Shown one piece after another: positions 17,288-62,805 of a stretch of DNA of 64,000 nt. The stretch comes from Carposina sasakii (Eukaryota > Arthropoda > Insecta > Lepidoptera > Carposinidae), in assembly GCA_014607495.2 (NCBI GenBank), contig CP053161.1:7759115-7823114 (forward strand). The letters are read 5' to 3'. Position numbers and translations under genes: made by a program. Numbering within the stretch: position 1 is the stretch's first letter; each line of letters opens with the position of its first letter. Under the pieces are notes generated by a model that was given only the letters and a program-made list of their open reading frames with translations, had not been told where the DNA came from and did no database searches.

Positions 17288-17566
17288 TCTTAGCGATCAG
17301 AGGCAGGTTTAATTTTTAAAAAAGAAACACCAAGACGACCTAATCAAACTTTATGTACTCAAGGTTACAAATAATTTAACAGAAACGAATAACACGAATC
17401 GAACAATATATTGCAACTTCCTATAACCAATAGACAGCCTAAACACGTCCTATCAGTCCAAAACGCCACGATCCAAAAACCCGCCAAGCTGCAGTCACCA
17501 CCATTTTATAGATCTACCCGCTTGGTCCCGACGTTTCTGTGTCCAATCTGGGGGTAACTGCTAAGA
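17288..17566 (-). repeat. Gyp-A 3' LTR
   Basis: 279 bp, matching 21655-21932 except for one extra A in an AAAA run near 17460. Its ends form a 7-bp inverted repeat (TCTTAGC/GCTAAGA) rather than the usual TG...CA. Confidence 0.85.
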
Positions 17567-17580
17567 CGGCCGTTCCTGAC
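17567..17580 (-). other. Gyp-A plus-strand primer position: tRNA-Leu-5'-like motif
   Basis: The 14 nt touching the 3' LTR read GTCAGGAACGGCCG on the element strand. There is no polypurine tract. Equivalent positions in Gyp-B and Gyp-C carry GTCAGAATGGCCG and GTCAGGATTGGCCG. All resemble the first 13 nt of tRNA-Leu as remembered (GTCAGGATGGCCG). Confidence 0.6.
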
Positions 17581-17857: not shown

Positions 17858-18174
17858 CACTGGACAGAGGCACAAAGTTCGCATGTCCCGACGACACTGG
17901 ACAGAGGCAGAAAGTTCGCATGTCCCGACGACACTGGACAGAGGCACAAAGTTCGCATGTCCCGACACAACGGTCGCAATAGTAACCACGCAAGTGACCC
18001 AACTCGGACACAGGCGCTAGCCATACCGGCCACACGACACAACGGTCGCAATAGTAACCACGCAAGTGACTCAACTCGGACACAGGCGCTAGCCATACCG
18101 GCCACACGACACAACGGTCGCAATAGTAACCACGCAAGTGACCCAACTCGGACACAGGCGCTAGCCATACTCAT
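17858..18174. repeat. Two adjacent minisatellites in Gyp-A 3' region (37 bp x3, 72 bp x3)
   Basis: CACTGGACAGAGGC recurs at 17858, 17895 and 17932 (37-bp period). CGACACAACGGTCGC recurs at 17963, 18035 and 18107 (72-bp period). They lie between the Gag-Pol end and the 3' LTR. The 72-bp period is divisible by 3, which explains the repetitive 85-113 aa frames on both strands; these are not genes. Confidence 0.85.
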
Positions 18175-19021: not shown

Positions 19022-19769
19022 TTAGGATGACTTAGTTAACGCTTTTACTTTCTCCGGACTCGGCCTAACCTGACCATTCCCAATTAGTCGTCCTAAATAT
19101 TCTACCTCAACGTCAAAGAAGGTACTTTTTTTATTTATGGAAAAACCCGCAGCTGTAAGAGCCTTCAGTATATCTTGCAATCTATCTAATCCCTCTTCAA
19201 TTGTATTAGATAGAATGAGAACGTCATCGATATATTTCAAATTTTTATCACCATCAATTAGGTGTTTTAGAGTATAAGAGATGATTCTTTGATAGACAAT
19301 GGGGGCGTTTGCCAAACCATAAGGCATATTTAAGTATTTGTAGTGCCCTATAGAAGTTACAAATGCAGTCTTATCAATGGAATCATCTTTCATAGGAACC
19401 TGGTGAAAGCCAGTTGCCATGTCGAGACTCGTGAAATATTTACAACTACCAACTTATCTATGTGTCTTCGATTAGTGGCAAAGGGAAACGTTCTTTTACA
19501 GTAATCGCATTTAGTGCACGGTAGTCCACGTACATCCTATCGCTTCCATCCTTCTTTTCTCTCAAACTATTCCCTTATCAACAAGATCCTTCAATATCAT
19601 TAACACGATTTTTCTCGTCAATGGAAAGCTTATATGGTCTATAACTTACAGGAACGGTACTTGTCAATTTTATTTCCATGCTGCCCGTACTAACTGTAGA
19701 AGTTGCTGTGCCAGTAACAAAATAATCGGAGAAATCGCGAATAAAGCAAACGATCTTTTTCACCGCCAA
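19022..19769 (-). pseudogene. Gyp-A reverse transcriptase, broken
   Basis: The 5' part (19769-19578) encodes the pre-RT segment (FSDYFVTG, STGSMEIKL, RPYKLSIDEK). After breaks, 19420-19022 gives GFHQVPM, KTAFVTS, MPYGLANAP and KYIDDVLILS, the catalytic YxDD box in YIDD form, then VEYLGRLIGNGQVRPSPEKV. The frame ends there; the connection domain and RNase H expected next are absent. Gyp-B loses sequence from the same point. Confidence 0.8.
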
Positions 19770-21641: not shown

Positions 21642-21654
21642 ATCCCACTTCTGA
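21642..21654 (-). other. Gyp-A primer binding site
   Basis: TCAGAAGTGGGAT abuts the 5' LTR on the element strand. It is identical to the site of Gyp-C. It matches the complement of the tRNA-Leu 3' region (…ATCCCACTTCTGA-CACCA), skipping the terminal five bases. Confidence 0.65.
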
Positions 21655-21932
21655 TCTTAGCGATCAGAGGCAGGTTTAATTTTTAAAAAAGAAACACCAA
21701 GACGACCTAATCAAACTTTATGTACTCAAGGTTACAAATAATTTAACAGAAACGAATAACACGAATCGAACAATATATTGCAACTTCCTATAACCAATAG
21801 ACAGCCTAAACACGTCCTATCAGTCCAAACGCCACGATCCAAAAACCCGCCAAGCTGCAGTCACCACCATTTTATAGATCTACCCGCTTGGTCCCGACGT
21901 TTCTGTGTCCAATCTGGGGGTAACTGCTAAGA
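21655..21932 (-). repeat. Gyp-A 5' LTR
   Basis: 278 bp; one 1-nt indel from the 3' LTR. Followed by the ATAC target duplication at 21933-21936. Confidence 0.85.
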
Positions 21933-43212: not shown

Positions 43213-44187
43213 CTACACTAATATTATAAAGAGGAAAACTTTGTTTGTTTGGTTGTAATGAATAGGCTCAAAAACTACTGGACCGATTTTAAAAATTCTT
43301 TCACCGTTAGAATCCTTATAGGACCTGGATGAACATAGGCTATAAGAATTTCCCGATATTCCCACGGGAAGGCGACAAACGGGAATTCTATATTTTTTAC
43401 GAAAACCACTATACATATGAAGCTGAAATCGGGCATATATGTTCATTGGGGAGAGCAAGGGAGGACTAAAAACGGATTTCCCGAAATTCCCACGGGAAGG
43501 GGACAAACGGGAATTCATAATTTTTACGAAAACCGCTATACATATTAAGCTGAAATTGGGCATAGATGTTCATTAGGGACTGCAAGTAAGCACTAAGGAC
43601 GAATTTCCCGAAATTCCCACGGGAAGGGGGCCAACGGGAATTAATTATTTTTTATGAAAACGGTTACACATATGAATCTTAAGTTGGGCATATTTGTTTA
43701 TTTGGGACCCCGAGGAAGCACTAGGAACGGATTTCTCGAAACTCCCACGGGAAGGGGACAAACGGGAATTCATTTTTTTACGACAAGCGCGATACATATG
43801 AATTCGAAATTAGACCTGTACGTTCATTAGGGACTGCGAGGGAGCGCTAAGAACGAATTTCCCGAAATTCCCACGGGAAGGGGACTAACGGGAATTCAAT
43901 TTTTTTACAAAAACCGCTGTACATGTGAAGCTAAAATCGGAGACTGCGGGGAAGCACTAAGAATTGATTTCCCGAAATTCCCACGGGAAGGGACTGTCTG
44001 TGCGTTTGTGCACGCTAATCTCAGGAACGGCTTAACCGATTTCGGTGCAGTTTTCAGGAATATATTGTGACAGGTCCCACTTAACATATAGGCTACTTTT
44101 TATCCCGGGAAAATGTTTTTATCCCGGATAATTTCGACATTTTTTTTTCTGTAGTCCACGCGGACGGAGTCGCGGGCGTCCACTAGT
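43213..44187. mobile_element. 975-bp dispersed element with ~127-bp tandem units, inserted in the left Penelope arm
   Basis: The uninterrupted right arm defines exact ends: the insert starts CTACACTAATATTATAAAGAGG and ends GCGGGCGTCCACTAGT, with at most 1-2 bp of target overlap. Inside are a head (ACTACTGGACCGATTTTAAAAATTC), about six units of some 127 bp (CCGAAATTCCCACGGGAAGG), and an RTE-type tail (43990-44187). Relatives lie at 62811-63683 and 63686-63845. The 116- and 60-aa minus frames are repeat-derived. Confidence 0.75.
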
Positions 44188-44406
44188 TATTTATATTTCA
44201 AATAAATATATACTATTTGTGCACACAAACCAAATAGTATTGGGTGAATTAGTTAAATTTAAATGAAAAAATTCAAAAATTCACCAAAATATTGATAAAT
44301 TAGTAAAGAAAAACAAGGATGTATGCAACAACATATTCCATTGCCCACAAAAACAAAAATTGTTATTGACATTGACAAGCCATTATATGTATACTAAAGT
44401 TACTAT

Positions 44407-45501
44407 TTATTTATTTATTCTAGCAATCGAATTTAATAGTGGGGAACAAAATTCAACTTGTTCATTTAAAAGGTTTACACCAGAATATTTGGCCTTCAAA
44501 ATCTCCAACTGTTCCAAAATAGATAGACGAATGCCCTTTTCACACGTATACAGACTAACAAAACTGTGGTCATCTGGAATTTTATGATTTGAAACTAACA
44601 AGTGTTTGGCAAAATGTGATTTTTCAGGGAAATTGTTCCTGTAAGCTGCCAGATGTTCTTGGTATCTAATCTTGAAGTTACGACCCGTTTGACCTATATA
44701 AACAGAATTACAGTCAGGACAGTGCAAGTTATAAACTCCTGATTTTTTATCAATTGGTAATATTTGTTTTGTGTTAATTAATCTATTTAAAGAATTAAAA
44801 GTCTTAAAAGCCACCAAGATGTTTTGTTTTTTCAATGATTTTGCAATCATCTCTGAGATATAGCCAAAATATGGTAAACTACCAGTATAAATATTTGTAA
44901 TCTCCTCTATTTTTGGGTACAACATTTGTTTAACTAAAATGTTTTTCTTTTTATCAATTAGGTTATAAATTAGTTGTGAACTATATCCATTTGATCTGGC
45001 TATTTGTATAATAGTATTTATTTCTTTAACATAATTAAAGTTATTAAGCGGCAACGTTACTAACCTGTGTATCATTGATTTGTATGCCGCAAGCTTATGT
45101 TGCCATGGATGGAAAGAATCAATTGGAATAGTTACATCTGTATGTGTTGGTTTCCGGTAAACTGAAAAATCATGATAATCTCCCAATCTAGTAATAGTTA
45201 CATCTAAAAAATTTATACTATTGTTTATTTCTTGTTCTATTTTAAATTTAATCTTAGGATGTTTTGTGTTAAGGACGTTAACAAAAAGATGAAACTGCCT
45301 AACTGTGCCTGTCCAACATAAGATGATATCATCAACATATCTAAAATAATATTTTATATGATTATTACTATTAACAATATATTCATTTTCAAACCAATCC
45401 ATAAATATATCGGCTAAAAGAGGTGAAAGCGGAGAACCCATAGTAAGACCATCCTTTTGTATGTAATATGTACTATTATAGCAGAAATAATTCTGGCTCA
45501 T
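44407..45501 (-). CDS. Penelope-like RT/GIY-YIG protein, 5'-truncated copy
   Basis: The 364-aa frame starts within the RT domain. It retains MGSPLSPLLADIFMDWFE and the catalytic YVDD, then the linker and the GIY-YIG endonuclease (SGVYNLHCPDCNSVYIGQTG). It is almost identical to the right-arm copy (V for F in NILVKQ, N for S in GVYNL). Upstream (45517-45620) is a 5' piece, DLLDQKARDF, in another frame, so an internal deletion removed about 180 codons. It lacks RT motifs N-terminal to MGSPLSP and should be inactive. Confidence 0.75.
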   Translation of the reverse strand: MSQNYFCYNSTYYIQKDGLTMGSPLSPLLADIFMDWFENEYIVNSNNHIKYYFRYVDDIILCWTGTVRQFHLFVNVLNTKHPKIKFKIEQEINNSINFLDVTITRLGDYHDFSVYRKPTHTDVTIPIDSFHPWQHKLAAYKSMIHRLVTLPLNNFNYVKEINTIIQIARSNGYSSQLIYNLIDKKKNILVKQMLYPKIEEITNIYTGSLPYFGYISEMIAKSLKKQNILVAFKTFNSLNRLINTKQILPIDKKSGVYNLHCPDCNSVYIGQTGRNFKIRYQEHLAAYRNNFPEKSHFAKHLLVSNHKIPDDHSFVSLYTCEKGIRLSILEQLEILKAKYSGVNLLNEQVEFCSPLLNSIARINK

Positions 45502-45638
45502 ACAAAGTCTAGTTAAAGTGCAAAGTCCCTAGCTTTCTGGTCTAAAAGATCAAACTCAACTGGATGAAGCTTAAAAGCCAATTCCATGTGCAAAACCTTT
45601 AAGATAATTTAAAAATACACTTAAAGGTTAGGTTAATA

Positions 45639-47270
45639 ATGAAGCATGAGGTGTATCATAGTAAGATAATGGAAATCCTCAATACAGATGAATTTCAAAT
45701 ATTACCATTTGATCCAACTAAGAAATTCCATGCACAATTAAAGCAATGTATTACTTCTGCTGAATATATTTTTCCAAAAAATTCTGCTTATTTAAAGGAA
45801 CGTTATATTCCTATGAACCCAGTAACACCATTGTTATATGGTTTACCAAAAATTCATAAAGATAATATACCATTAAGGCCAGTCGTTTCATATATTGGAG
45901 CTCCAGCTTATAAATTAGCAAAATTTCTGAATGACATTATAAAGGAAAAAATTCAATTTACACCCAAATATAGTGTCAATAATAGTCTAAATTTAATAGA
46001 TAAAATTAAAAATATTAAATTATCAACAAATTCCAAATTATTTTCTTTAGATGTTGAGAGTTTGTTTACAAATGTTCCTTACAAGGAATGTTTAAATATT
46101 ATTAAAACTTGGTGTGAAAAAGTTAAACTAAATCCAATGGAGGCAGATAATCTTATTACCTTAACTAGACTTTGTATGAGCCAGAATTATTTCTGCTATA
46201 ATAGTACATATTACATACAAAAGGATGGTCTTACTATGGGTTCTCCGCTTTCACCTCTTTTAGCCGATATATTTATGGATTGGTTTGAAAATGAATATAT
46301 TGTTAATAGTAATAATCATATAAAATATTATTTTAGATATGTTGATGATATCATCTTATGTTGGACAGGCACAGTTAGGCAGTTTCATCTTTTTGTTAAC
46401 GTCCTTAACACAAAACATCCTAAGATTAAATTTAAAATAGAACAAGAAATAAACAATAGTATAAATTTTTTAGATGTAACTATTACTAGATTGGGAGATT
46501 ATCATGATTTTTCAGTTTACCGGAAACCAACACATACAGATGTAACTATTCCAATTGATTCTTTCCATCCATGGCAACATAAGCTTGCGGCATACAAATC
46601 AATGATACACAGGTTAGTAACGTTGCCGCTTAATAACTTTAATTATGTTAAAGAAATAAATACCATTATACAAATAGCCAGATCAAATGGATATAGTTCA
46701 CAACTAATTTATAACCTAATTGATAAAAAGAAAAACATTTTATTTAAACAAATGTTGTACCCAAAAATAGAGGAGATTACAAATATTTATACTGGTAGTT
46801 TACCATATTTTGGCTATATCTCAGAGATGATTGCAAAATCATTGAAAAAACAAAACATCTTGGTGGCTTTTAAGACTTTTAATTCTTTAAATAGATTAAT
46901 TAACACAAAACAAATATTACCAATTGATAAAAAATCAGGAGTTTATAGCTTGCACTGTCCTGACTGTAATTCTGTTTATATAGGTCAAACGGGTCGTAAC
47001 TTCAAGATTAGATACCAAGAACATCTGGCAGCTTACAGGAACAATTTCCCTGAAAAATCACATTTTGCCAAACACTTGTTAGTTTCAAATCATAAAATTC
47101 CAGATGACCACAGTTTTGTTAGTCTGTATACGTGTGAAAAGGGCATTCGTCTATCTATTTTGGAACAGTTGGAGATTTTGAAGGCCAAATATTCTGGTGT
47201 AAACCTTTTAAATGAACAAGTTGAATTTTGTTCCCCACTATTAAATTCGATTGCTAGAATAAATAAATAA
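45639..47270 (+). CDS. Penelope-like reverse transcriptase / GIY-YIG endonuclease
   Basis: This 543-aa open frame has RT motifs LDVESLFTN (137-145), GLTMGSPLSPLLADIF (197-212), FRYVDDIILCW (232-242, catalytic YVDD 234-237) and a FLDVTI motif (278-283). A C-terminal GIY-YIG nuclease follows: GVYSLHCPDCNSVYIGQTGR (434-453, with the CxxC insertion), and a distal Glu-containing helix. Full proteins of this group are longer, so the N-terminus is missing here; the frame is open upstream of this ATG for a few codons. No internal stops. The RT would copy element RNA and the nuclease would nick target DNA. The overlapping antisense 75-aa frames are shadows. Confidence 0.85.
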   Translation: MKHEVYHSKIMEILNTDEFQILPFDPTKKFHAQLKQCITSAEYIFPKNSAYLKERYIPMNPVTPLLYGLPKIHKDNIPLRPVVSYIGAPAYKLAKFLNDIIKEKIQFTPKYSVNNSLNLIDKIKNIKLSTNSKLFSLDVESLFTNVPYKECLNIIKTWCEKVKLNPMEADNLITLTRLCMSQNYFCYNSTYYIQKDGLTMGSPLSPLLADIFMDWFENEYIVNSNNHIKYYFRYVDDIILCWTGTVRQFHLFVNVLNTKHPKIKFKIEQEINNSINFLDVTITRLGDYHDFSVYRKPTHTDVTIPIDSFHPWQHKLAAYKSMIHRLVTLPLNNFNYVKEINTIIQIARSNGYSSQLIYNLIDKKKNILFKQMLYPKIEEITNIYTGSLPYFGYISEMIAKSLKKQNILVAFKTFNSLNRLINTKQILPIDKKSGVYSLHCPDCNSVYIGQTGRNFKIRYQEHLAAYRNNFPEKSHFAKHLLVSNHKIPDDHSFVSLYTCEKGIRLSILEQLEILKAKYSGVNLLNEQVEFCSPLLNSIARINK

Positions 47271-47612
47271 ATAGTAACTTTAGTATACATATAATGGCTT
47301 GTCAATGTCAATAACAATTTTTGTTTTTGTGGGCAATGGAATATGTTGTTGCATACATCCTTGTTTTTCTTTACTAATTTATCAATATTTTGGTGAATTT
47401 TTGAATTTTTTCATTTAAATTTAACTAATTCACCCAATACTATTTGGTTTGTGTGCACAAATAGTATATATTTATTTGAAATATAAATAATGGTGGGTAA
47501 TTATTTATATATTTTTTAATACTTAGTAGAGGGTAGTTAATTCTGTGTAAGTAATGTGTTGGGTTTTAGAGGTTCATAGTAATTAGTGGTTTACTAATTT
47601 ACTAATTTCTAT

Positions 47613-52002: not shown

Positions 52003-52298
52003 TGTGGGAGATTTGTGTATTTATTAATGTAAAATAACATTTGTTTTGTTAAATAAAAATAAATTAGTTGTTGTGTTGACTAGTACGAGGTTCCAGTGAC
52101 AGGTACGCTGTTTTACCGACGACCGGGTACTACGAAGTACGTGGTTCCGGTCTCAGGTACGCGGTATAACTGTCATACGGATACCACGTGGTTAGTTTCC
52201 ACTTCCCTCGGTCACTTGTTTATGCCATGCTTTATAAGCGCTTGCAAAACGATAAGCGGACGAGTTTTGTTCCGACTGTTGCGGTGACTGTTTGTAAG
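52003..52298 (+). repeat. Gyp-B 5' LTR, short form
   Basis: Matches the first 296 bp of the 491-bp 3' LTR (two mismatches), up to GTTTGTAAG. It then joins directly to AAACAAAATACT and the Gag ATG. The last 195 bp of the LTR and the primer site are missing. Confidence 0.75.
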
Positions 52299-52310
52299 AA
52301 ACAAAATACT

Positions 52311-53528
52311 ATGTCAGACAAGAATCTGTGTGAGGACGCGACTATAGATTCCGAAGTGCAGGATCCGGGCATTCCATGCATCGCACCGGCCTCACCAATC
52401 CTCAGTCAACGCTCCGTACTGACGGGGCAACAACCTGTGAACGAAAACGTTGCGCCTGGAACCAACCAGGAGGGAATTCCTACAATAGACTCCAATGGAC
52501 CTATTACAAATGCCGGTAATTTCGTTCCTTTAAATTTTATGAAGTCTATAATGCAAGAAATGATGGCTACCTTCAGTCAAACATGTACTAACGCTTTTCC
52601 TACGCCTTCGACCGCACAACCATTGTCCAGACCTAGGAATCTTGACCACATCTACTTGCCCTCATTCGACCCCGATGACCGAGCGGATACGGTTCAAGTC
52701 TGGTGCCAACATTTAGAAGAACTTCAGGCTGAATACCAGCTTAATAACCGAGAAATGCTTAATTTGGCTAGGAAGAACTTGAAGGGTCGTGCTGCTGATT
52801 GGGCACGCCGAAACTACGCTAGTCTAACTAATTGGCTAGAACTGAAAAATAATATTGTCCAAACCTTTGCAGATGAAACTAGGTATTATGACGATTTGAC
52901 CGCATTCATGGAGTATACGAGTGATAAGACCGGCAACCTTGCTGAGTATGCAACCCGCAAATGGGAGCTGGCAAAGAGGGCAGTAGGCGTTGCAGTGACA
53001 GAGGCGCATTTAGTTGAAGCTGTGATATCAGGTATGTCAGACTTTCGTATTAGATCTGATTTGTTACGGTTGACACCCAAAACTTTGCCCCAGTTGGTGC
53101 AAAGTCTTAATTCTTATAAACGCAAGCAACCAATATGCGATACTACTCACTCAATCCCTACTAAGAAAACTAAATTAAACCCTAATGATTTTAAATTAAG
53201 GCGCTGTCAAAGATGTTTTAAGTTAGGTCATGTACAAAGAGATTGTTATACCATCATTAAAAACAAATTGCCTTCCCCTGACAGTTCTGTTGCGGCTCAG
53301 CCTCTAACTAACCAGTTAATTCCTGAACCTCAAAATAAAGTGATACCTTCTCGACCTCTCACTTGTAGCTTTTGTCATAAACCAGGTCATAAGTATGAAA
53401 ATTGCTTCAAACGTCTAAACAAGACTGCTAAATCAGAAAAATCTATAAATTCCCTGGTAGTTAGTAATTCCCGTTCCGTGATAGCTAAAATTGATGAACG
53501 GAGTATAGTGGGGCCGAATGTTCCCTAA
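52311..53528 (+). CDS. Gyp-B Gag
   Basis: 405 aa from ATG 52311. It contains a capsid-like region (YLPSFDPDDRADTVQVWCQ, LNLARKNLKGRAADW, near residues 115-165) and two CCHC zinc knuckles, CQRCFKLGHVQRDC (299-312) and CSFCHKPGHKYENC (352-365). The frame is open upstream into the LTR, with another ATG at 52227 inside the LTR; Gyp-C also starts Gag in its LTR. Gag overlaps the protease frame at its end. It appears intact and would form virus-like particles that carry element RNA. The 64-aa antisense frame is a shadow. Confidence 0.85.
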   Translation: MSDKNLCEDATIDSEVQDPGIPCIAPASPILSQRSVLTGQQPVNENVAPGTNQEGIPTIDSNGPITNAGNFVPLNFMKSIMQEMMATFSQTCTNAFPTPSTAQPLSRPRNLDHIYLPSFDPDDRADTVQVWCQHLEELQAEYQLNNREMLNLARKNLKGRAADWARRNYASLTNWLELKNNIVQTFADETRYYDDLTAFMEYTSDKTGNLAEYATRKWELAKRAVGVAVTEAHLVEAVISGMSDFRIRSDLLRLTPKTLPQLVQSLNSYKRKQPICDTTHSIPTKKTKLNPNDFKLRRCQRCFKLGHVQRDCYTIIKNKLPSPDSSVAAQPLTNQLIPEPQNKVIPSRPLTCSFCHKPGHKYENCFKRLNKTAKSEKSINSLVVSNSRSVIAKIDERSIVGPNVP

Positions 53529-53867: not shown

Positions 53868-54634
53868 TTGCTTAACATATTAAATGGTTATACTGATCTT
53901 TTTACTTCTGGAAATTGTGTTACACCCGTCAATACTGGCGAGTTATCGATTCGTCTAAAGAACCCAGATAAAAAGGTACAAAGACGGCCTTACCGTCTTG
54001 CTCCCATTGAACGGGAAAGTGTTAAGAAAATTATTCAAGACCTAAAAAGTAATTACATTATTCGTGATAGCAATTCTCCTTTTTCTAGTCCCATTTTCTA
54101 TTAGTCCGTAAAAAGGACGGTAGTGATCGCCTTTGCGTTGATTTTAGAGAGCTAAATAGCAACACAGTGCGCGATAATTTTCCACTTCCGTTAATTGACG
54201 ACCATATTAGTAAACTCGTAAATGCTAAATATTTCACAGTACTAGATATGGCGGCAGGTTTCCACCAAATCCCTATAGCTCCTAGTTCTATTGAGAAAAC
54301 AGCCTTTGTTACACCCGATGGGCAATATGAATTCTTGCGTATGCCTTTCGGGTTGTGCAATGCCCCATCCGTTTTCCAGAGAGCAATTACAGCCGCTCTT
54401 AAACCATACGTTGATATCTTTGTACTAATATACGTCGATGATGTTATAATTTTCTCCAGTACTATTGAGGATGGTATTGAAAAATTACGAAATGTTCTTG
54501 ATTGTTTAAGAAAAGCCGGATTCTCTTTAAATATCAGAAAGTGTAAATTTCTCAAAACCGAAATTGAATATTTAGGTCGTATTATATCTAATAGCTCTGT
54601 TAGACCCAGTCCTGGTAAAGTTTCAAGCTCGTGA
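53868..54634 (+). pseudogene. Gyp-B reverse transcriptase, one break then truncated
   Basis: 53868-54104 encodes the pre-RT segment (VNTGELSIRL, RRPYRLAPIERE, SPFSSPI) and ends by frameshift at SPILLV. 54110-54634 is a good RT core: CVDFRELNSNT, FTVLDMAAGFHQIP, KTAFVTPDGQYEFLRMPFGL, LIYVDDVIIFSS (catalytic YVDD). It stops shortly after RPSPGKV. A deletion joins this to a DCNSLKASS block (54640), the end of RNase H, removing about 230 residues. Confidence 0.8.
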
Positions 54635-54639
54635 CGGAT

Positions 54640-55674
54640 TGTAACTCCTTAAAAGCATCTAGTAATAAAAAAGAATTACTTCCTCGTGTTCACCAGTGGT
54701 GGGCCTACTTACAGTCTTTCGATTTTGACATTTAGTAACGGAGAGAAGAACGTATCCCAGATGTAGACTTTTTGAGTAGGAATCCCCCGCCTCTCAATAT
54801 TAATAATGTACTTATTTATAATGATTGGTTAGAGGTTGGTCAGGAAAAAGATTCGGAAACTAAAAACTTATTAGAACCTATAAAAAACGGGTCTATAGAT
54901 AAAAGTATAGCTTCTAGTTATGAAATACAAAACGGGTTACTTTACAAAGTCTACAATACAAAAGACAATAAAACAAAAAAGGCCTTGTTTGTTCCTAAAA
55001 GTTACAGATGGTATATCATTCAAACTTTTCATGATTCATTAAAACACTTGGGATGGGAAAAAACTCTTGATAAGATCCGTGAGAATTTTTGGTTCCCTAA
55101 TATAACTAAAAACGTCCGAAAGTATGTTGAGAATTGCCTAACATGTAAAATTAACAAAAGTCAATATGGTTCGCGTCAAGTGTCCTTGCATCCTATTGAT
55201 AAAAAGCCCTTACCTTTCCATACAGTGCACATGGATACGACAGGAAAACTCAGTGGAGGTAACGCTGTGGTATTCGTGGATGCTTTTTCGAAATACTGTT
55301 TCATAAAACCCGTATTAAATCTTACGGCAACCGCTACTGTTAATTGTTTAAAGGATTTAATTTATACCTTTGGTACCCCCAAAAGAATTATTTGCGATCA
55401 AGCTGCATCGTATACTGGTAAAGAATTGCGGGCATTTTGTAATATTTGGTCAATTGAGCTGCATTTTATTGCTAGCGGTGTCAGCCGTGCAAATGGTCAA
55501 GTCGAAAGACTTATGAAAGTTTTGACAGACTGTTTCACGGTAATAGAAAATACTTCACGGAGAAGCTGGAAGGATGCTGTCGGTGAAGTTCAATTGGCTA
55601 TTAACTGTTCATTTAATAAAACTACAGGTCAGACTCCCTTCCAGCTACGCCTCCTGCCATCTCCGCCCTCATAA
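54640..55674 (+). CDS. Gyp-B integrase (with RNase H tail fragment)
   Basis: After the RNase H end fragment (LPRVHQWWAYLQSFDFDI and a stop), an open frame resumes near 54772. It carries the zinc-binding H87, H92, C122, C125 (HDSLKH, CLTCK) and the catalytic triad D155 (HMDTTGK), D209 (ICDQAAS), E245 (NGQVER), a DD-35-E spacing (numbering from 54772). It ends at a frameshift at LPSPPS (55674). This enzyme inserts element cDNA into chromosomes. The core itself looks intact. Confidence 0.75.
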
Positions 55675-56089: not shown

Positions 56090-56600
56090 AGAATGTTTGT
56101 ATTATGGCTGTACCCTTGTGGCGTTTTTACCGAGGCCAATAAGATATCTCTAGTGTATTAAGTAATATGGCTGTGCCCTTGTGGCGTTTTTACCGAGGCC
56201 AATAAGATATCTCTAGTGTATTAAGTATTATGGCTGTGCCTTTGAGGCGTTTTTACCGAGGCCAATAAGATATCTCTAGTGTATTAAGTATTATGGCTGT
56301 GCCTTTGAGGCGTTTTTACCGAGGCCAATAAGATATCTCTAGTGTATTAAGTAATATAGCTGTGCCCTTGTGGCGTTTTTACCGAGGCCAATAAGATATC
56401 TCTAGTGTATTAAGTATTATGGCTGTGCCTTTGAGGCGTTTTTACCGAGGCCAATAAGATATCTCTAGTGTATTAAGTAATATGGCTGTGCCCTTGTGGC
56501 GTTTTTACCGAGGCCAATAAAATATCGCTAGTGTATTAAGTATTATGGCTGTGCCTTTGTGGCGTTTTACCGAGGCCAATAACATTAATGTGTAATTATT
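56090..56600 (+). repeat. 63-bp minisatellite in Gyp-B 3' region, ~8 copies
   Basis: ATGGCTGTGCC recurs every 63 bp from 56104 (56167, 56230, ...), each unit with GGCGTTTTTACCGAGGCCAATA. The last copies are degenerate. Stop codons occur in all units, so it is non-coding. Confidence 0.9.
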
Positions 56601-56780: not shown

Positions 56781-56793
56781 GTCAGAATGGCCG
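56781..56793 (+). other. Gyp-B plus-strand primer position: tRNA-Leu-5'-like motif
   Basis: GTCAGAATGGCCG abuts the 3' LTR (TGTGGG). It corresponds exactly to the first 13 nt of a tRNA-Leu with an A at position 6. No purine tract is present upstream. Confidence 0.6.
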
Positions 56794-57284
56794 TGTGGGA
56801 GATTTGTGTATTTATTAATGTAAAATAACATTTGTTTTGTTAAATAAAAATTAATTAGTTGTTGTGTTGACTAGTACGAGGTTCCAGTGACAGGTACGCT
56901 GTTTTACCGACGACCGGGTACTACGAAGTACGTGGTTCCGGTCTCAGGTACGCGGTATAACTGTCAGACGGATACCACGTGGTTAGTTTCCACTTCCCTC
57001 GGTCACTTGTTTATGCCATGCTTTATAAGCGCTTGCAAAACGATAAGCGGACGAGTTTTGTTCCGACTGTTGCGGTGACTGTTTGTAAGGTAAACTGTTG
57101 ATTATACTATTTTTATATAAAGCTATCTTGTCCCATATTATATTGTTAATTATTGATAGCATACAGTTATTTGTTAATAATTTATGTACTTAATTGCACA
57201 ACTGAAATTTTTAAATAGTGTGCTTATTTAGAATAAACATTAAGTATTTATATTTTCGTGTTTTACTTATTTCAATCTCTCTCA
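56794..57284 (+). repeat. Gyp-B 3' LTR, full length
   Basis: 491 bp, TGTGGGAG...CTCTCTCA, with an AATAAA at about 57231. Position 296 is AAG|GTAAAC, a splice-donor-like site at which the 5' LTR copy stops. Confidence 0.75.
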
Positions 57285-57290
57285 TATATA

Positions 57291-57653
57291 TAAAGGCACC
57301 GAGAAGTCTTCACCAGAAGAATCCATAATTATCGTGGGTAGGCGGGCTAGGAGACTTGGGGTTCGATGAAATGATGAAATACTTAGTAAACCGAAAATAC
57401 ACTTCTTTAATGATTCGCCAATTAAATTTACAAATCGTAACGATAAGAGATTACACGGATACAATCAGATTAGTTATTTACTGACGTTCCACTGAACACG
57501 TGAGACGCGTGCGCAACGTCTTTTTACTGCGGTCGCTCAATGACAACTGACTCGGTAATGGCCGCCGTCTCAGTGCCCAGTGTTACGTCTTCTGTCAGGA
57601 GTATGCGGGTAGTTTTGTTATAAGTCAACCGCCATTCCTTCGATGCGCCGTCA
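57291..57653 (-). repeat. Gyp-C 3' LTR
   Basis: 363 bp; element strand starts TGACGGCGC and ends GCCTTTA. One difference from the 5' LTR (G versus A at about 57527/62683). It also carries a copy of the start of the Gag ORF. Confidence 0.85.
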
Positions 57654-57667
57654 CGGCCAATCCTGAC
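57654..57667 (-). other. Gyp-C plus-strand primer position: tRNA-Leu-5'-like motif
   Basis: GTCAGGATTGGCCG abuts the 3' LTR on the element strand. A second related word, GTCAGGAATGGTCGAG, lies 70 bp inside (57737-57752) and extends the tRNA-Leu match to GAG. Confidence 0.6.
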
Positions 57668-57840
57668 TGTCGCACGCCCACGTGCGTTTAGTCATCTTGT
57701 TGAGGATCATCTGAAATGTAGAGATGTCATTACTTGCTCGACCATTCCTGACATAAAGTTACTCCCGTCTTAGTTATTACTCAGCTTAGGACAGGCCCGG
57801 GCGTACATGGCCCTTTCGCCCAGCTTTACCAGACTAAAGG

Positions 57841-58180
57841 GCATGGACTAGGTGTGCTGGACCTTTTCGACCATCCTTACAAAAACCTCGAGGCGTGGAC
57901 CAGGCGTACTGGGCCTTTCCGACCAGCCACACATATCTCTAAGGCGTGGACCAGGCGTACTGGGCCTTTCCGACCAGCCATACATAACTCCAAGGCGTGG
58001 ACCAGGCGTACTAGGCCTTTCCGACCAGCCATACACATCTCAAAGGCGTGGACCAGGCGTGCCAGGCCTTTCCGACCAGCCATACACATATCTAAGGTGT
58101 GGACCAGGCGTGCTGGGCCTTTTCGACCAGCCATTTCCAACTACAAGGTATGGACCAGGCGTACTGGGCCTCTTCGACCA
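57841..58180. repeat. 51-bp minisatellite in Gyp-C 3' region, ~6-7 copies
   Basis: GGCGTGGACCAGGCGT recurs at 57892, 57943, 57994 and onward every 51 bp, each with CCTTTCCGACCAGCCA. Because 51 is divisible by 3, repetitive 62-114 aa frames appear on both strands; these are not genes. Confidence 0.9.
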
Positions 58181-58227: not shown

Positions 58228-61200
58228 CTATCCAAACTCACTTTCATTTGTGTGATTCTCTAACTCAGAGACAACAGAGATAGTTTCGGAGCCGGCTGTC
58301 ATAGTACCCTCACTCGAAATCGAGATGGTATCGCTGTCGCTATCAACCAGGGATATTTGATCAATTTGCTCCCCCTCGACCGCCGACTCGGCCTCTTGAC
58401 TATCAAGCATATTTGTCGCGATTTCTGCTAAGCCCTCAAAGCCCCTCGGCACTAAACGCAGATTTTCATGTGAATATTTGTAGACACGATTACCGCCGGA
58501 TATGGGCTTCAATTCGTATCTATCGTTAGTTAGTACTTGTGTTATGATAAAAGGTCCGCGGAATTTTCTAGACAATTTAGTTTGATTCCGTTCACTGCAT
58601 TTGATAAAAACGTATTCTCCACATGAAAAGGGTCTTACTTTTGCTCTACCACGATCAAAGCGCTCAGCTTCAGCAACAGCCGCCCTTTGAATACGATCTG
58701 ATGCCGTGTTCCGAATCGCATCTAAATCAGCGCGTTTAGGCGAACTTACGTTTGGCGATATGCTTGATAAGCCTAACGATTGCGCGCGAATACCGAACAT
58801 TAACTCAGTTGGGGTGTACCCAGTGACTCTAGACCTTGTACTGTTTAATGCCAATTGAACATTATCAAGTTCTTCGCGCCAAACTTTATTTGGATCGTTT
58901 TCTATTATGGTTAGAAGACATTTTAAGGTGCGCATGATACGCTCGACTTGTCCATTAGCCCTAGAAGAGCCAGTAGCGATAAGGTGCAATTCAATATTAT
59001 GCTCCTTACAGAATTCTTTAAAGTTTGAACTAACATAGCACCTTCCCTGATCAGCTATGACTCTTTTAGGTGCCCCGAACAGAGAAACCGCCTTTTTCAA
59101 GGCCTTGACTGCGCATACAGAATCTACAGACTGAGTATACTCCAATAGCACATATTTGGTGAACCCATCAATTATTACCGACACGTATTCTTTACGATCA
59201 CTTTTACCACTGAGCTTGCCTGTTAAATCGATGTGGATAGTATGCCAGGGAACTGTAATTTTAGGAATAGGATGTAGTCGTAACTGTTGGGCTCCCGATG
59301 GACCCTTCGAGGCGGTGCATACTATACAAGAATTAACGAACTTTCGGACATTTTTTGCCATTTGTGGGAACCAATACTGTTCATAGATTTTATCGAGTGT
59401 TTTATCGTAGCCTAAATGTTTAATTTCGTTATGCACGTGATTGATTAAAGTCCAAATAAGAGATCGTGGTACTATGGGTAACCAGGAGCTAATTTTGTTA
59501 CGCTCAACTTTTCTGTATAAAACACCGTTACGCACATCGTACGTGTGCGATACGGCTTCTGGCAGTTCGTTATTAGTGTGCTTGCTAATAAGATCCAAAA
59601 TTTCTGAATCTCTATTTTGCTCAACTTGCAGCCAACCATCGTGAAGTTCAACAAAATTAACTAACTTACGTGGGGTTGACAGACTAACTTCAGACTCTTC
59701 TTGTTCTGTTATCGGTTCAGTCGGGGAAGGGAGCGGGTTTCTCGACAAGTAATCAGCGTGTTCCATCTTTCGACCTTCTTTGTACACTATGTCAAAATCA
59801 TGAGCTTGGAGGTACGCCCACCACCGATGGACGCGTGGAGAAAGGTCTACTTTAGATTTTGAAGCCTTCAAAGAATTGCAGTCAGTGAACACAGTGAAAT
59901 GTTGGCCATAGAGATAGTGGCGAAAGTTTTCGACAGCGCGCACCACCGCTAAGGTTTCCAGTTCATATGAATGGTATCTGGACTCCGTATCGGTGGTGCG
60001 GCGGCTAAAGTACGCGATAACCTGGGGTATATTAACGTACCTTTGAATTAAAATGGCCCCGTAGCCTGCTGAACTCGCGTCAGTGTGGAGTTCTATCGGA
60101 ACCTCGGGATTAAAGATCGTCAAAACTGGTTCAGATGTTAAAATAGCGATTATCTTTTCATGGACTTCACGGTGTTTACCGGACCAGGTAATGGGTCCTT
60201 TCAACTTTGTAAGCGGGTATAGAGGACCAGCCAGTGTGGCAAAATTAGGGATAAACCTTCGAAAGTAGGATGCCAGACCGAGAAACTGCCTAACTTGCGT
60301 AGCTGTGGTTGGAGCTGGGACATTAATAAGGGCTTTGATTTTTCGCGGATTGGGTCTCACTTCCCCGGCCTGGATAACGTAACCAAGATAATCAATTTCA
60401 CTTTTTAAGAACTTGCACTTACGCATATTAAAAGAGAAACCGGCTTCAGATAGGGCAGTTAGAACCGCTTCTAAACGACGTAATCCTTCGCTTACATCGG
60501 GTGAAAAGCAAAGCACATCATCCATATATGCTAGAGCTACAGTATCTTTAAGAGATTTTAGTGCTTTGTTGATGCAGCGTTGGTAAATGGACGCTGCATT
60601 TCTTAACCCGAAGGGCATAGCTAAATATTCATACTGGCCATCCGGTGTAACGAAGGCCGTACGTTCTACTGAATCAGATTCCACAGTAATTTGATGGTAT
60701 CCTGAAGCCATGTCCAGAGAGGAAAAATAGTGCGCTCCACTTAGCTTATCTACCTGCTCGTCTATTCTGGGGAGGGGGTAGTGTTCAGGATGTGTATTCG
60801 AATTGAGTTCCCTGTAATCAACACACATCCTGTCCGTACCATCCTTCTTTTTAACTAACAAGATAGGGCTTGCGAACGGAGAAGAACTTTCACGTATGAC
60901 TCCTGCTTCGAGAAGGGACTGAACTTTATCTTTAACTATTTCTTTTTCGGTGGGAGATAATCGATAAGGACGACGTTGTACTGTTTTATGGGGATCAATT
61001 AAATCAATTTTAAGACTACCTGTTGAAACGCGGCGAGTGGGGACGCCCTCTATAAAGAATTTACTAAACCTTTGCAATACGTCTATCAAAGCGAGCTTTT
61101 CAGCGCCAACTAAATCAGTATCGATAGTACTAAAATCAAACATGGTGTCATTACACACATTAATTTCTTTGCGCAATATAAAAGCTAGATGATCACTATT

Positions 61201-62478
61201 AATTTCGACGTGAATACCCTGCTCAAGAATATCTCTTCCTACAATAATTGCTTCCGAGATAGCATTGTCCGGCACAACGTGAAAAAGTATAGACAAGGGG
61301 ATATCTTGGATCGTAACAGAGCTAGTAATTTGCTTAGTGCATTTTACATCTTCCCCACCAATCCCGGTTAAATAAACAGTATCATCGCATTCAGTACCAA
61401 GAAGCTTATCGGCGAAGCTACATTTTACCAAAGAACAGGCCGATCCACTATCGAAAAGAAACAAAATGACCTCACCAGTTGATGTTGACAGGTTACCTCT
61501 CGCTGTTCGCCGCGTACAGATCTGGACGTCCTTGCGGGTGATGGACTCCGCTTGAGTTTTCTTGTTAGGGCAGCTAGTACTGAGATGCCCCGCCTTGCCG
61601 CAGGTGTAACAGGTTACGGTGCGGTCCTTTTCTTTCTCCTTTTCCAGGTTCCTCGGCTTCATGTCACGACGTTTGCGGCAATCTTCCATTTTATGACCCC
61701 GGTGACCGCAGAAATGGCAGCTCCCATTGAATTTGAAATCAGTTAAACGTGGACGCTTTACTTCTGTGTCATGGGCTTCAGACTCGTCGTGGCGTCTCTT
61801 CAACGAAATACCGTTAAGCACCCTGCATAGTTGAGCTCGTGTAGAAATAGTGTGGGAATTGAACTCTCTGCGTATTAGGGCGTCTTTTTGCGACAAAACA
61901 GAAATTGCAAACCCGGTAATGACATCTTCGCCCATTTCAAGTTTTGGGATGCGTTGGATGAGGTTCCACAGTCTCATGGCAGCTTCATTCGCGGTTTCTT
62001 TATTTCCTATTTGGAATCTTAGTACCTCATCGAAATAATCCTGCATTAACATCGGGCGACCGAATTTCGCAAGTAAGATTTCTTTGACGTGTGACCATGT
62101 TATTTCGGCGCTACTTAGTTTGATTAGGCACTTGGCAGCTCGGCCCTTGAGTGCATGCGTGAGCGCAAGCAGTAGCTCTGTTCCAACCAGCTGTCGACTG
62201 TTCACAATTATTTCAGTTAGGTTACACCAACCTTCGATGTCGGAATCGCCTTCATCTGGATCGAATTGGACAAGGCGCGGTGTGGAGTGACTCGGTGATG
62301 AATTTTGAGTAGATGCCAGTATACGGGATAAGAGAGTTTCCATGTTGGTCAGGAAACCTTGCGCCTCGACATTCGTGGTTGATGGGCCAGCGGTCTTACT
62401 GCTGGTCTCCTCAGAATTAAGCCCTCGAGATCCCACTTCTGATAAAGGCACCGAGAAGTCTTCACCAGAAGAATCCAT
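58228..62478 (-). CDS. Gyp-C Gag-Pol polyprotein
   Basis: 1416 aa from ATG 62478 (frame open a further 46 codons upstream, without ATG). In order: capsid region; CCHC knuckles CHFCGHRGHKMEDC (254-267) and CYTCGKAGHLSTSC (290-303); protease FDSGSACSL (DSG 343-345); RT with YMDD (651-654); RNase H (HTDASSAGYG about 798-807; TDCNSL); integrase with H1016, H1021, C1051, C1054 and triad D1084, D1143, E1179 (DD-35-E); GPF-type tail. All catalytic residues seen are present. Gag and Pol are one frame without stop or frameshift, unusual for Gypsy elements. The ATG lies in the 5' LTR, 36 nt before its end, and codons 13-17 (SEVGS) are the primer site. The other frames across 59156-62290 are shadows. 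Confidence 0.92.
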   Translation of the reverse strand: MDSSGEDFSVPLSEVGSRGLNSEETSSKTAGPSTTNVEAQGFLTNMETLLSRILASTQNSSPSHSTPRLVQFDPDEGDSDIEGWCNLTEIIVNSRQLVGTELLLALTHALKGRAAKCLIKLSSAEITWSHVKEILLAKFGRPMLMQDYFDEVLRFQIGNKETANEAAMRLWNLIQRIPKLEMGEDVITGFAISVLSQKDALIRREFNSHTISTRAQLCRVLNGISLKRRHDESEAHDTEVKRPRLTDFKFNGSCHFCGHRGHKMEDCRKRRDMKPRNLEKEKEKDRTVTCYTCGKAGHLSTSCPNKKTQAESITRKDVQICTRRTARGNLSTSTGEVILFLFDSGSACSLVKCSFADKLLGTECDDTVYLTGIGGEDVKCTKQITSSVTIQDIPLSILFHVVPDNAISEAIIVGRDILEQGIHVEINSDHLAFILRKEINVCNDTMFDFSTIDTDLVGAEKLALIDVLQRFSKFFIEGVPTRRVSTGSLKIDLIDPHKTVQRRPYRLSPTEKEIVKDKVQSLLEAGVIRESSSPFASPILLVKKKDGTDRMCVDYRELNSNTHPEHYPLPRIDEQVDKLSGAHYFSSLDMASGYHQITVESDSVERTAFVTPDGQYEYLAMPFGLRNAASIYQRCINKALKSLKDTVALAYMDDVLCFSPDVSEGLRRLEAVLTALSEAGFSFNMRKCKFLKSEIDYLGYVIQAGEVRPNPRKIKALINVPAPTTATQVRQFLGLASYFRRFIPNFATLAGPLYPLTKLKGPITWSGKHREVHEKIIAILTSEPVLTIFNPEVPIELHTDASSAGYGAILIQRYVNIPQVIAYFSRRTTDTESRYHSYELETLAVVRAVENFRHYLYGQHFTVFTDCNSLKASKSKVDLSPRVHRWWAYLQAHDFDIVYKEGRKMEHADYLSRNPLPSPTEPITEQEESEVSLSTPRKLVNFVELHDGWLQVEQNRDSEILDLISKHTNNELPEAVSHTYDVRNGVLYRKVERNKISSWLPIVPRSLIWTLINHVHNEIKHLGYDKTLDKIYEQYWFPQMAKNVRKFVNSCIVCTASKGPSGAQQLRLHPIPKITVPWHTIHIDLTGKLSGKSDRKEYVSVIIDGFTKYVLLEYTQSVDSVCAVKALKKAVSLFGAPKRVIADQGRCYVSSNFKEFCKEHNIELHLIATGSSRANGQVERIMRTLKCLLTIIENDPNKVWREELDNVQLALNSTRSRVTGYTPTELMFGIRAQSLGLSSISPNVSSPKRADLDAIRNTASDRIQRAAVAEAERFDRGRAKVRPFSCGEYVFIKCSERNQTKLSRKFRGPFIITQVLTNDRYELKPISGGNRVYKYSHENLRLVPRGFEGLAEIATNMLDSQEAESAVEGEQIDQISLVDSDSDTISISSEGTMTAGSETISVVSELENHTNESEFG
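62430..62442 (-). other. Gyp-C primer binding site, inside the Gag ORF
   Basis: TCAGAAGTGGGAT abuts the 5' LTR on the element strand, identical to Gyp-A. It is translated as part of Gag (SEVGS). Confidence 0.65.
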
Positions 62479-62805
62479 AATTATCGTGGGTAGGCGGGCT
62501 AGGAGACTTGGGGTTCGATGAAATGATGAAATACTTAGTAAACCGAAAATACACTTCTTTAATGATTCGCCAATTAAATTTACAAATCGTAACGATAAGA
62601 GATTACACGGATACAATCAGATTAGTTATTTACTGACGTTCCACTGAACACGTGAGACGCGTGCGCAACGTCTTTTTACTGCAGTCGCTCAATGACAACT
62701 GACTCGGTAATGGCCGCCGTCTCAGTGCCCAGTGTTACGTCTTCTGTCAGGAGTATGCGGGTAGTTTTGTTATAAGTCAACCGCCATTCCTTCGATGCGC
62801 CGTCA
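62443..62805 (-). repeat. Gyp-C 5' LTR
   Basis: 363 bp, one mismatch to the 3' LTR. On the element strand an initiator-like GAGTCAGTTGT lies about 100 nt in and the Gag ATG about 327 nt in. Confidence 0.85.

What the first reader, a model, noticed from the sequence alone, without database searches (positions are those of the whole stretch)
56781..57667. tRNA-Leu 5'-end sequence in place of the polypurine tract in three LTR retrotransposons
Seen: the bases touching the 3' LTR are GTCAGGAACGGCCG (Gyp-A, 17567-17580), GTCAGAATGGCCG (Gyp-B, 56781-56793) and GTCAGGATTGGCCG (Gyp-C, 57654-57667), with no purine tract. The LTRs that follow differ in sequence, so this is not LTR homology. Known, from memory: tRNA-Leu begins GTCAGGATGGCCG and ends ATCCCACTTCTGACACCA. 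In Gyp-A and Gyp-C the primer site TCAGAAGTGGGAT is complementary to that 3' part, missing the last five bases. Inference: one tRNA-Leu may serve twice. Its 3' part would prime minus-strand DNA, and a 5' tRNA fragment, identical to the plus strand here, would anneal to the cDNA and prime plus-strand DNA exactly at the LTR edge. A simpler alternative is that the motif is an ancestral copy of tRNA sequence cut as an unusual PPT.
Basis: partly seen in the sequence, partly recalled or inferred. Interest (0 to 1): 0.88.

Follow-up and report, generated by a model that had tools for sequence, protein, structure and literature searches.

The report
tRNA-like tract replaces retrotransposon purine primer
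A group of insect-type jumping genes appears to start its second DNA strand at a short sequence resembling the front end of the leucine tRNA that starts the first strand, instead of at the usual run of purines; how that works is still open.

Summary
In Gyp-A, Gyp-B and Gyp-C the bases touching the 3' LTR are a tRNA-Leu-5'-like motif, with no purine tract. It is not confined to the window: six families with different LTRs have the motif at an edge shown by comparing LTR copies; three more are inferred. Core: CAGRA-N(1-2)-GGCCG|LTR. RT pieces of five families are 49-61% identical, other Gypsy RTs held at most 43%; two elements outside the group have ordinary purine tracts. I read it as a plus-strand primer site replacing the polypurine tract in one clade. 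Whether tRNA itself primes is undecided: seven of nine edges carry an extra base, three differ at position 6, and the covariation test failed for lack of material: every PBS read in these families is tRNA-Leu, except a degenerate one in Gyp-B, and tRNA-Ser patterns found nothing above chance. Most plausible: the element's own RNA is cut there by RNase H. A tRNA-fragment primer stays possible. 84 of 97 PBS copies on four contigs have no strict motif in reach.

The parts
17567..17580 (-). Gyp-A motif GTCAGGAACGGCCG touching the 3' LTR (presumed plus-strand primer site)
17288..17566 (-). Gyp-A 3' LTR, TCTTAGC...GCTAAGA, flanked by target duplication GTAT
21655..21932 (-). Gyp-A 5' LTR
21642..21654 (-). 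Gyp-A primer binding site TCAGAAGTGGGAT, complementary to the tRNA-Leu 3' end without its last five bases
19022..19420 (-). Gyp-A reverse transcriptase fragment (RVT_1)
52003..52298 (+). Gyp-B 5' LTR (3' boundary not resolved)
52350..52364 (+). Gyp-B degenerate primer-site-like sequence TCCGAAGTGCAGGAT
   Evidence: by eye
54167..54634 (+). Gyp-B reverse transcriptase (RVT_1)
54772..55674 (+). Gyp-B integrase (Integrase_H2C2, rve)
56781..56793 (+). Gyp-B motif GTCAGAATGGCCG touching the 3' LTR
56794..57089 (+). Gyp-B 3' LTR, apparently truncated
57291..57653 (-). Gyp-C 3' LTR, TGACGG...CCTTTA, target duplication TATA
   Evidence: ends placed by hand
57654..57667 (-). Gyp-C motif GTCAGGATTGGCCG touching the 3' LTR
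58228..62616 (-). Gyp-C long open frame (gag and pol by its position and domains), starting inside the 5' LTR and running through the primer site
   Evidence: integrase domains of a piece
62430..62442 (-). Gyp-C primer binding site TCAGAAGTGGGAT
62443..62805 (-). Gyp-C 5' LTR
   Evidence: ends placed by hand

Best explanation
The motif is the plus-strand primer site of one group of tRNA-Leu-primed Ty3/Gypsy elements: a non-polypurine replacement of the polypurine tract. Shown: it abuts U3 in six families, its core is kept while the adjoining LTRs differ, and no long purine run stands beside it there. Inferred: after minus-strand synthesis the element's RNase H cuts the element RNA after GGCCG (or two bases earlier, if integrase trims two bases), and the surviving piece ending in CAGRA-N(1-2)-GGCCG primes plus-strand DNA. 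Its likeness to tRNA-Leu 1-13 most likely reflects origin from a captured copy of the primer tRNA, or selection for something shared with it, rather than a tRNA molecule priming in every cycle.
For: Edge motif in six families with LTR comparison: A, B, C, A2 and E, D (D was reached through a match in RT coding, so it was not selected by its edge). Three more inferred from PBS spacing or LTR start: F, G, H. In the nine edges GGCCG is invariant, CAGRA is present in all nine, and the next base is T. RT pieces of A, B, C, D, E are 49-61% identical, against at most 43% to the other Gypsy RTs held. Leu PBS TCAGAAGTGGGAT: 751 matches against 2 for the reversed pattern (tRNA-Leu genes are among the 751). 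Of 25 strict motifs on contigs C1-C4, 13 have a same-strand PBS 2.5-9 kb upstream (one of the 13 is of the type that in two other copies is internal, not the edge); 0 in the reverse order, 2 and 0 on the opposite strand. Two elements outside the RT group (L048, L056; RT 33-38% identical) end in GGAGGGGGAGGA|LTR and AGAGGGGGAGG|LTR.
Against: No biochemical data. 84 of 97 PBS copies on C1-C4 have no strict motif within 2.5-9 kb; some must be fragments or variants such as H, but families with a different edge are not excluded. The genome-wide strict count of 153 against 19 includes other sequences: of 7 places read, 2 look like edges, 1 is an internal match about 80 nt before the edge, and 4 could not be identified as edges. 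In F the edge itself holds an 8-purine run, AGGAAAGG, three bases short of the LTR, so a purine signal is not excluded everywhere. A box GAGGACG begins 14-17 nt before the motif in 6 of 9 families and might contribute.
Confidence: 0.62

Rival explanations
1. A tRNA-Leu 5' fragment is itself the plus-strand primer. The tRNA joined to the minus strand, or a free 5' tRNA fragment, anneals to the cDNA copy of the motif, RNase H cuts it near tRNA position 13, and the end is extended into U3. One tRNA would serve both strands.
For: The same tRNA matches both sites. Predicted pairing of tRNA 1-15 with the minus strand is -20.4 to -24.2 kcal/mol in 8 of 8 edge sequences, reached by 0 of 300 shuffles each (RNA parameters stand in for RNA-DNA). 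B and H have no extra base between CAGRA and GGCCG, like the tRNA.
Against: The other seven of nine edges carry an extra base; B, E and G have A at position 6; the middle bases vary. The element's own RNA pairs better with the cDNA in 7 of 8 cases, B being the exception, and is already in place. No covariation test was possible.
Confidence: 0.12
2. The motif is not primarily a primer but the 3' half of a two-part tRNA binding site, as Ty3 has in its 3' U3 region, pairing with the primer tRNA in the RNA genome.
For: CAGRA can pair with the tRNA 3' acceptor strand whether R is G or A. Predicted pairing with tRNA 61-87 is reached by only 2-12 of 300 shuffles in four of 8 edges (B, C, E, G). Ty3 has a bipartite PBS with one part in 3' U3 (PMC5371799, passages and section 6).
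Against: In the other four edges (A, D, F, H) 25-199 of 300 shuffles reach that pairing, and pairing with tRNA 11-26 is reached by 42-205 of 300 in all 8. It does not explain why the motif touches U3 exactly.
Confidence: 0.1
3. The likeness to tRNA-Leu is a coincidence; CAGRA-N-GGCCG is simply the RNase H cutting signal of this group.
Against: The match is at the very 5' end of the same tRNA that matches the PBS, which makes coincidence less likely (inference).
Confidence: 0.16

Closest known systems
Polypurine tract of Ty3/Gypsy elements and retroviruses
   Same: Position at the 5' edge of the 3' LTR; presumed role as plus-strand primer.
   Different: No long purine run in the six families compared (longest 4-6 in 80 nt; 57-64% purine in the last 14 nt), and pyrimidines CC in the invariant GGCCG. 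Family F, inferred, has an 8-purine run inside the motif.
Mag lineage of Ty3/Gypsy
   Same: Mag-like elements of Culex have PBS matching tRNA-Leu or tRNA-Ser (PMC3286476, passages).
   Different: No Mag reference sequence was available to place these families; a tRNA-like edge was not mentioned in the passages seen.
Ty3 bipartite primer binding site
   Same: tRNA-related sequence at the 3' end as well as at the 5' PBS.
   Different: In Ty3 the 3' part lies in U3 and hybridises with the tRNA (PMC5371799, passages); here it lies just outside the LTR and has the same sense as the tRNA 5' end.
Hepadnavirus plus-strand primer translocation
   Same: Precedent for a short RNA moved from elsewhere to prime the plus strand (recalled; only a search listing was seen).
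   Different: The primer there comes from the viral RNA, not from a tRNA (recalled).

Membership tests
Ty3/Gypsy (Metaviridae) | Reverse transcriptase and integrase with zinc-binding H2C2 and rve domains | tested here: met
   RVT_1 in A and B pieces, Integrase_H2C2 and rve in B and C pieces
Ty3/Gypsy (Metaviridae) | LTRs, tRNA-type PBS at the 5' LTR, short target duplication | tested here: met
   A and C; B has LTRs but no clear PBS or target duplication
Mag lineage | Groups with Mag reverse transcriptase | not tested
   no Mag sequence held; only PBS usage fits (PMC3286476, passages)
Element with a polypurine tract | Run of purines abutting the 3' LTR | tested here: not met
   six families; the inferred family F has AGGAAAGG three bases before the LTR
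tRNA-primed plus strand | tRNA fragment found at the plus-strand 5' end | not testable with these tools
   needs cDNA ends
tRNA-primed plus strand | Edge motif changes with the PBS tRNA | tested here: inconclusive
   tRNA-Ser edge and PBS patterns not above control (2 against 0); every PBS read in these families is tRNA-Leu, except Gyp-B's degenerate site

The most novel reading that the evidence does not exclude
One host tRNA primes both DNA strands: its 3' part the minus strand at the PBS and its 5' part the plus strand at the U3 edge, making a polypurine tract unnecessary in a whole group of Gypsy elements.
Probability: 0.12. Interest if true: 0.92.

Novelty: new variant of a known kind. 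Interest (0 to 1): 0.6.

Why it matters
A purine tract is treated as a standard mark of LTR retrotransposons. A group of families that keeps a different, tRNA-like sequence there would show that plus-strand primer selection by RNase H can rest on another signal, and it makes a tRNA role in plus-strand priming directly testable.

Tried and rejected
A central copy of the motif (19061-19074, RT coding GQVRPSP) as a central primer site: similar matches occur in A2 and D, but the codons of Gyp-B and Gyp-C do not keep it, and those elements had surfaced through that very match. tRNA-Ser-like hits in L048 and L056 lie in elements outside the group with ordinary purine tracts and not at their LTR edges. 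Relatives elsewhere: none in viral contigs, genome contigs or phages. Of 14 regions that I picked from the places listed (one of only 3.0 kb), 4 had an LTR pair starting right after the motif and 10 did not. One of three elements fetched through RT coding (L068/L069) gave no LTR pair. An edge search not relying on CAGRA (GAGGACG...GGCCGT) did not complete, nor was the one-mismatch edge search (122, 124) or any protein search of this genome (42, 45, 47, 49, 51, 52, 56, 92). Literature: the listings of searches showed no title or abstract start about a tRNA-like sequence in place of the tract; beyond listings I saw only passages of PMC10886601, PMC3286476, PMC5371799 (55, with section 6) and PMC3601003. 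Most subscription papers are not held.

Full report
What is there. The window lies in a 399-Mb genome of 31 contigs; that it is an insect, perhaps a moth or butterfly, is my inference. The three elements are Ty3/Gypsy LTR retrotransposons (RVT_1 in A and B, Integrase_H2C2 and rve in B and C). Alignment of LTR copies puts the motif directly against the 3' LTR in all three: GTCAGGAACGGCCG|TCTTAGC (A), GTCAGAATGGCCG|TGTGGGA (B), GTCAGGATTGGCCG|TGACGGC (C). A and C have 4-bp target duplications (GTAT, TATA; read) and the PBS TCAGAAGTGGGAT at the 5' LTR. B has a degenerate PBS-like sequence and a 3' LTR that seems truncated.

The tRNA. One pattern search found 7 tRNA-Leu loci. The 6 printed start GTCAGGATGGCCGAGCGGTC; all 7 carry ATCCCACTTCTGACA; ARAGORN called Leu-CAG in 4 of 7. 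The 19 PBS copies read outside tRNA genes all lack the complement of the last five bases, CACCA, so the minus strand must start on a shortened tRNA or by an unknown route (inference).

Is it general? Beyond the window the motif touches LTRs with other starts in A2 (L016, L017; TTTTGTC), a further copy of A (L018) and E (L020; TGTCGGAG), with the same PBS read in L017, L018 and L020 (these were chosen because they held the motif, 4 of 14 regions). Family D (L064-L067; LTR TATAAGC, edge ATCAGGATAGGCCG, same PBS) came up through a match in RT coding sequence, so its edge was not selected. F and G rest on PBS spacing: F, GTCAGGAAAGGCCG|TGTTGGAG, with a PBS 5.7-7.4 kb upstream in 5 copies; G, GTCAGAATTGGCCG|TGTTACC, in 1 copy. 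H was picked up through an internal chance match, and its edge, GCAGGACGGCCG|TGTCGGAG in two copies, carries the core in a form that the strict pattern misses. Its LTR start is inferred from likeness to E, and its PBS was read at a third copy (L087).

Statistics. The strict pattern RTCAGRAWNGGCCG occurs 153 times against 19 for its reverse, but part of this is not LTR edges: of 7 places read, 2 look like edges, 1 is the internal match of H and 4 could not be identified. The PBS pattern occurs 751 times against 2, tRNA-Leu genes included. On C1-C4, where both lists are complete, 13 of 25 strict motifs have a same-strand PBS 2.5-9 kb upstream, against 0 in the reverse order and 2 and 0 on the opposite strand; one of the 13 is of H's internal type. 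84 of 97 PBS copies there have no strict motif in reach. Eight of those were read at the PBS only: four belong to one family and the other four have different LTR ends. The group is diverse and its edges are only partly sampled.

Relationships. RT pieces of A, B, C, D and E are 49-61% identical to one another and at most 43% to the other Gypsy RTs in hand; A2, F, G and H were not compared. Integrase pieces: B-C 41%, C-D 33% and B-D 29% with L003 (the broken copy L005 gives 26-36% in pieces). Integrase of C against elements outside the group reaches similar values (27-29% with L037 and L048), so the grouping rests on RT. Two elements outside it have ordinary tracts: ACTTGGAGGGGGAGGA|TATAGC (L048) and TTAGAGGGGGAGG|GTGTAAC (L056).

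Mechanism. In the LTR elements studied so far the 5' edge of U3 is set by the end of the plus-strand primer (established knowledge), so the sequence touching it is the primer site by position. The nine edges share CAGRA, one or two free bases and GGCCG, and the next base is T (A and A2 have the same edge). Element RNA is predicted to pair with its own cDNA at -23.6 to -28.3 kcal/mol, tRNA 1-15 at -20.4 to -24.2 (8 edges). Both could serve; the first needs no extra partner. If the tRNA were the primer I would expect selection to keep an exact 13-base match, and none of the nine has one. I therefore prefer an element-encoded, mostly non-purine primer of possible tRNA origin and keep the tRNA primer at 0.12. 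A Ty3-like bipartite site has some support in four of 8 edges and none in the others. In F the edge holds an 8-purine run, which leaves room for a purine contribution there.

The missing test. Covariation needs relatives with another PBS. Mag-like elements of Culex use tRNA-Leu or tRNA-Ser (PMC3286476, passages), so I looked for tRNA-Ser versions: the edge pattern gave 61 against 64 for the control; PBS patterns gave 2 against 0 and 11 against 11, of which 7 lie beside tRNA-Ser gene starts listed. Only these patterns, partly from memory, were tried; none showed such a relative, and other insects could not be searched.

Noticed in passing
17858-18170, 56099-56582, 57840-58180: Each of the three elements carries a tandem array (37 and 72 bp, 63 bp, 51 bp units) between pol and the 3' LTR.
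   Followed up: partly
62430-62616: In Gyp-C the long frame starts inside the LTR and the primer site is read in frame as SEVGS; by eye L080, L083, L084 and L086 look similar. The primer site would then be coding.
   Followed up: partly
21642-21654, 62430-62442: The PBS starts five bases short of the tRNA 3' end (no match to CACCA) in the 19 copies read outside tRNA genes.
   Followed up: partly
44187-47490: Inverted repeat with 1333-nt arms, 100% complementary, 638 nt apart.
   Followed up: no
19061-19074: RT coding GQVRPSP resembles tRNA-Leu 1-15 in A, A2 and D, near the middle of D; not kept in B and C.
   Followed up: partly
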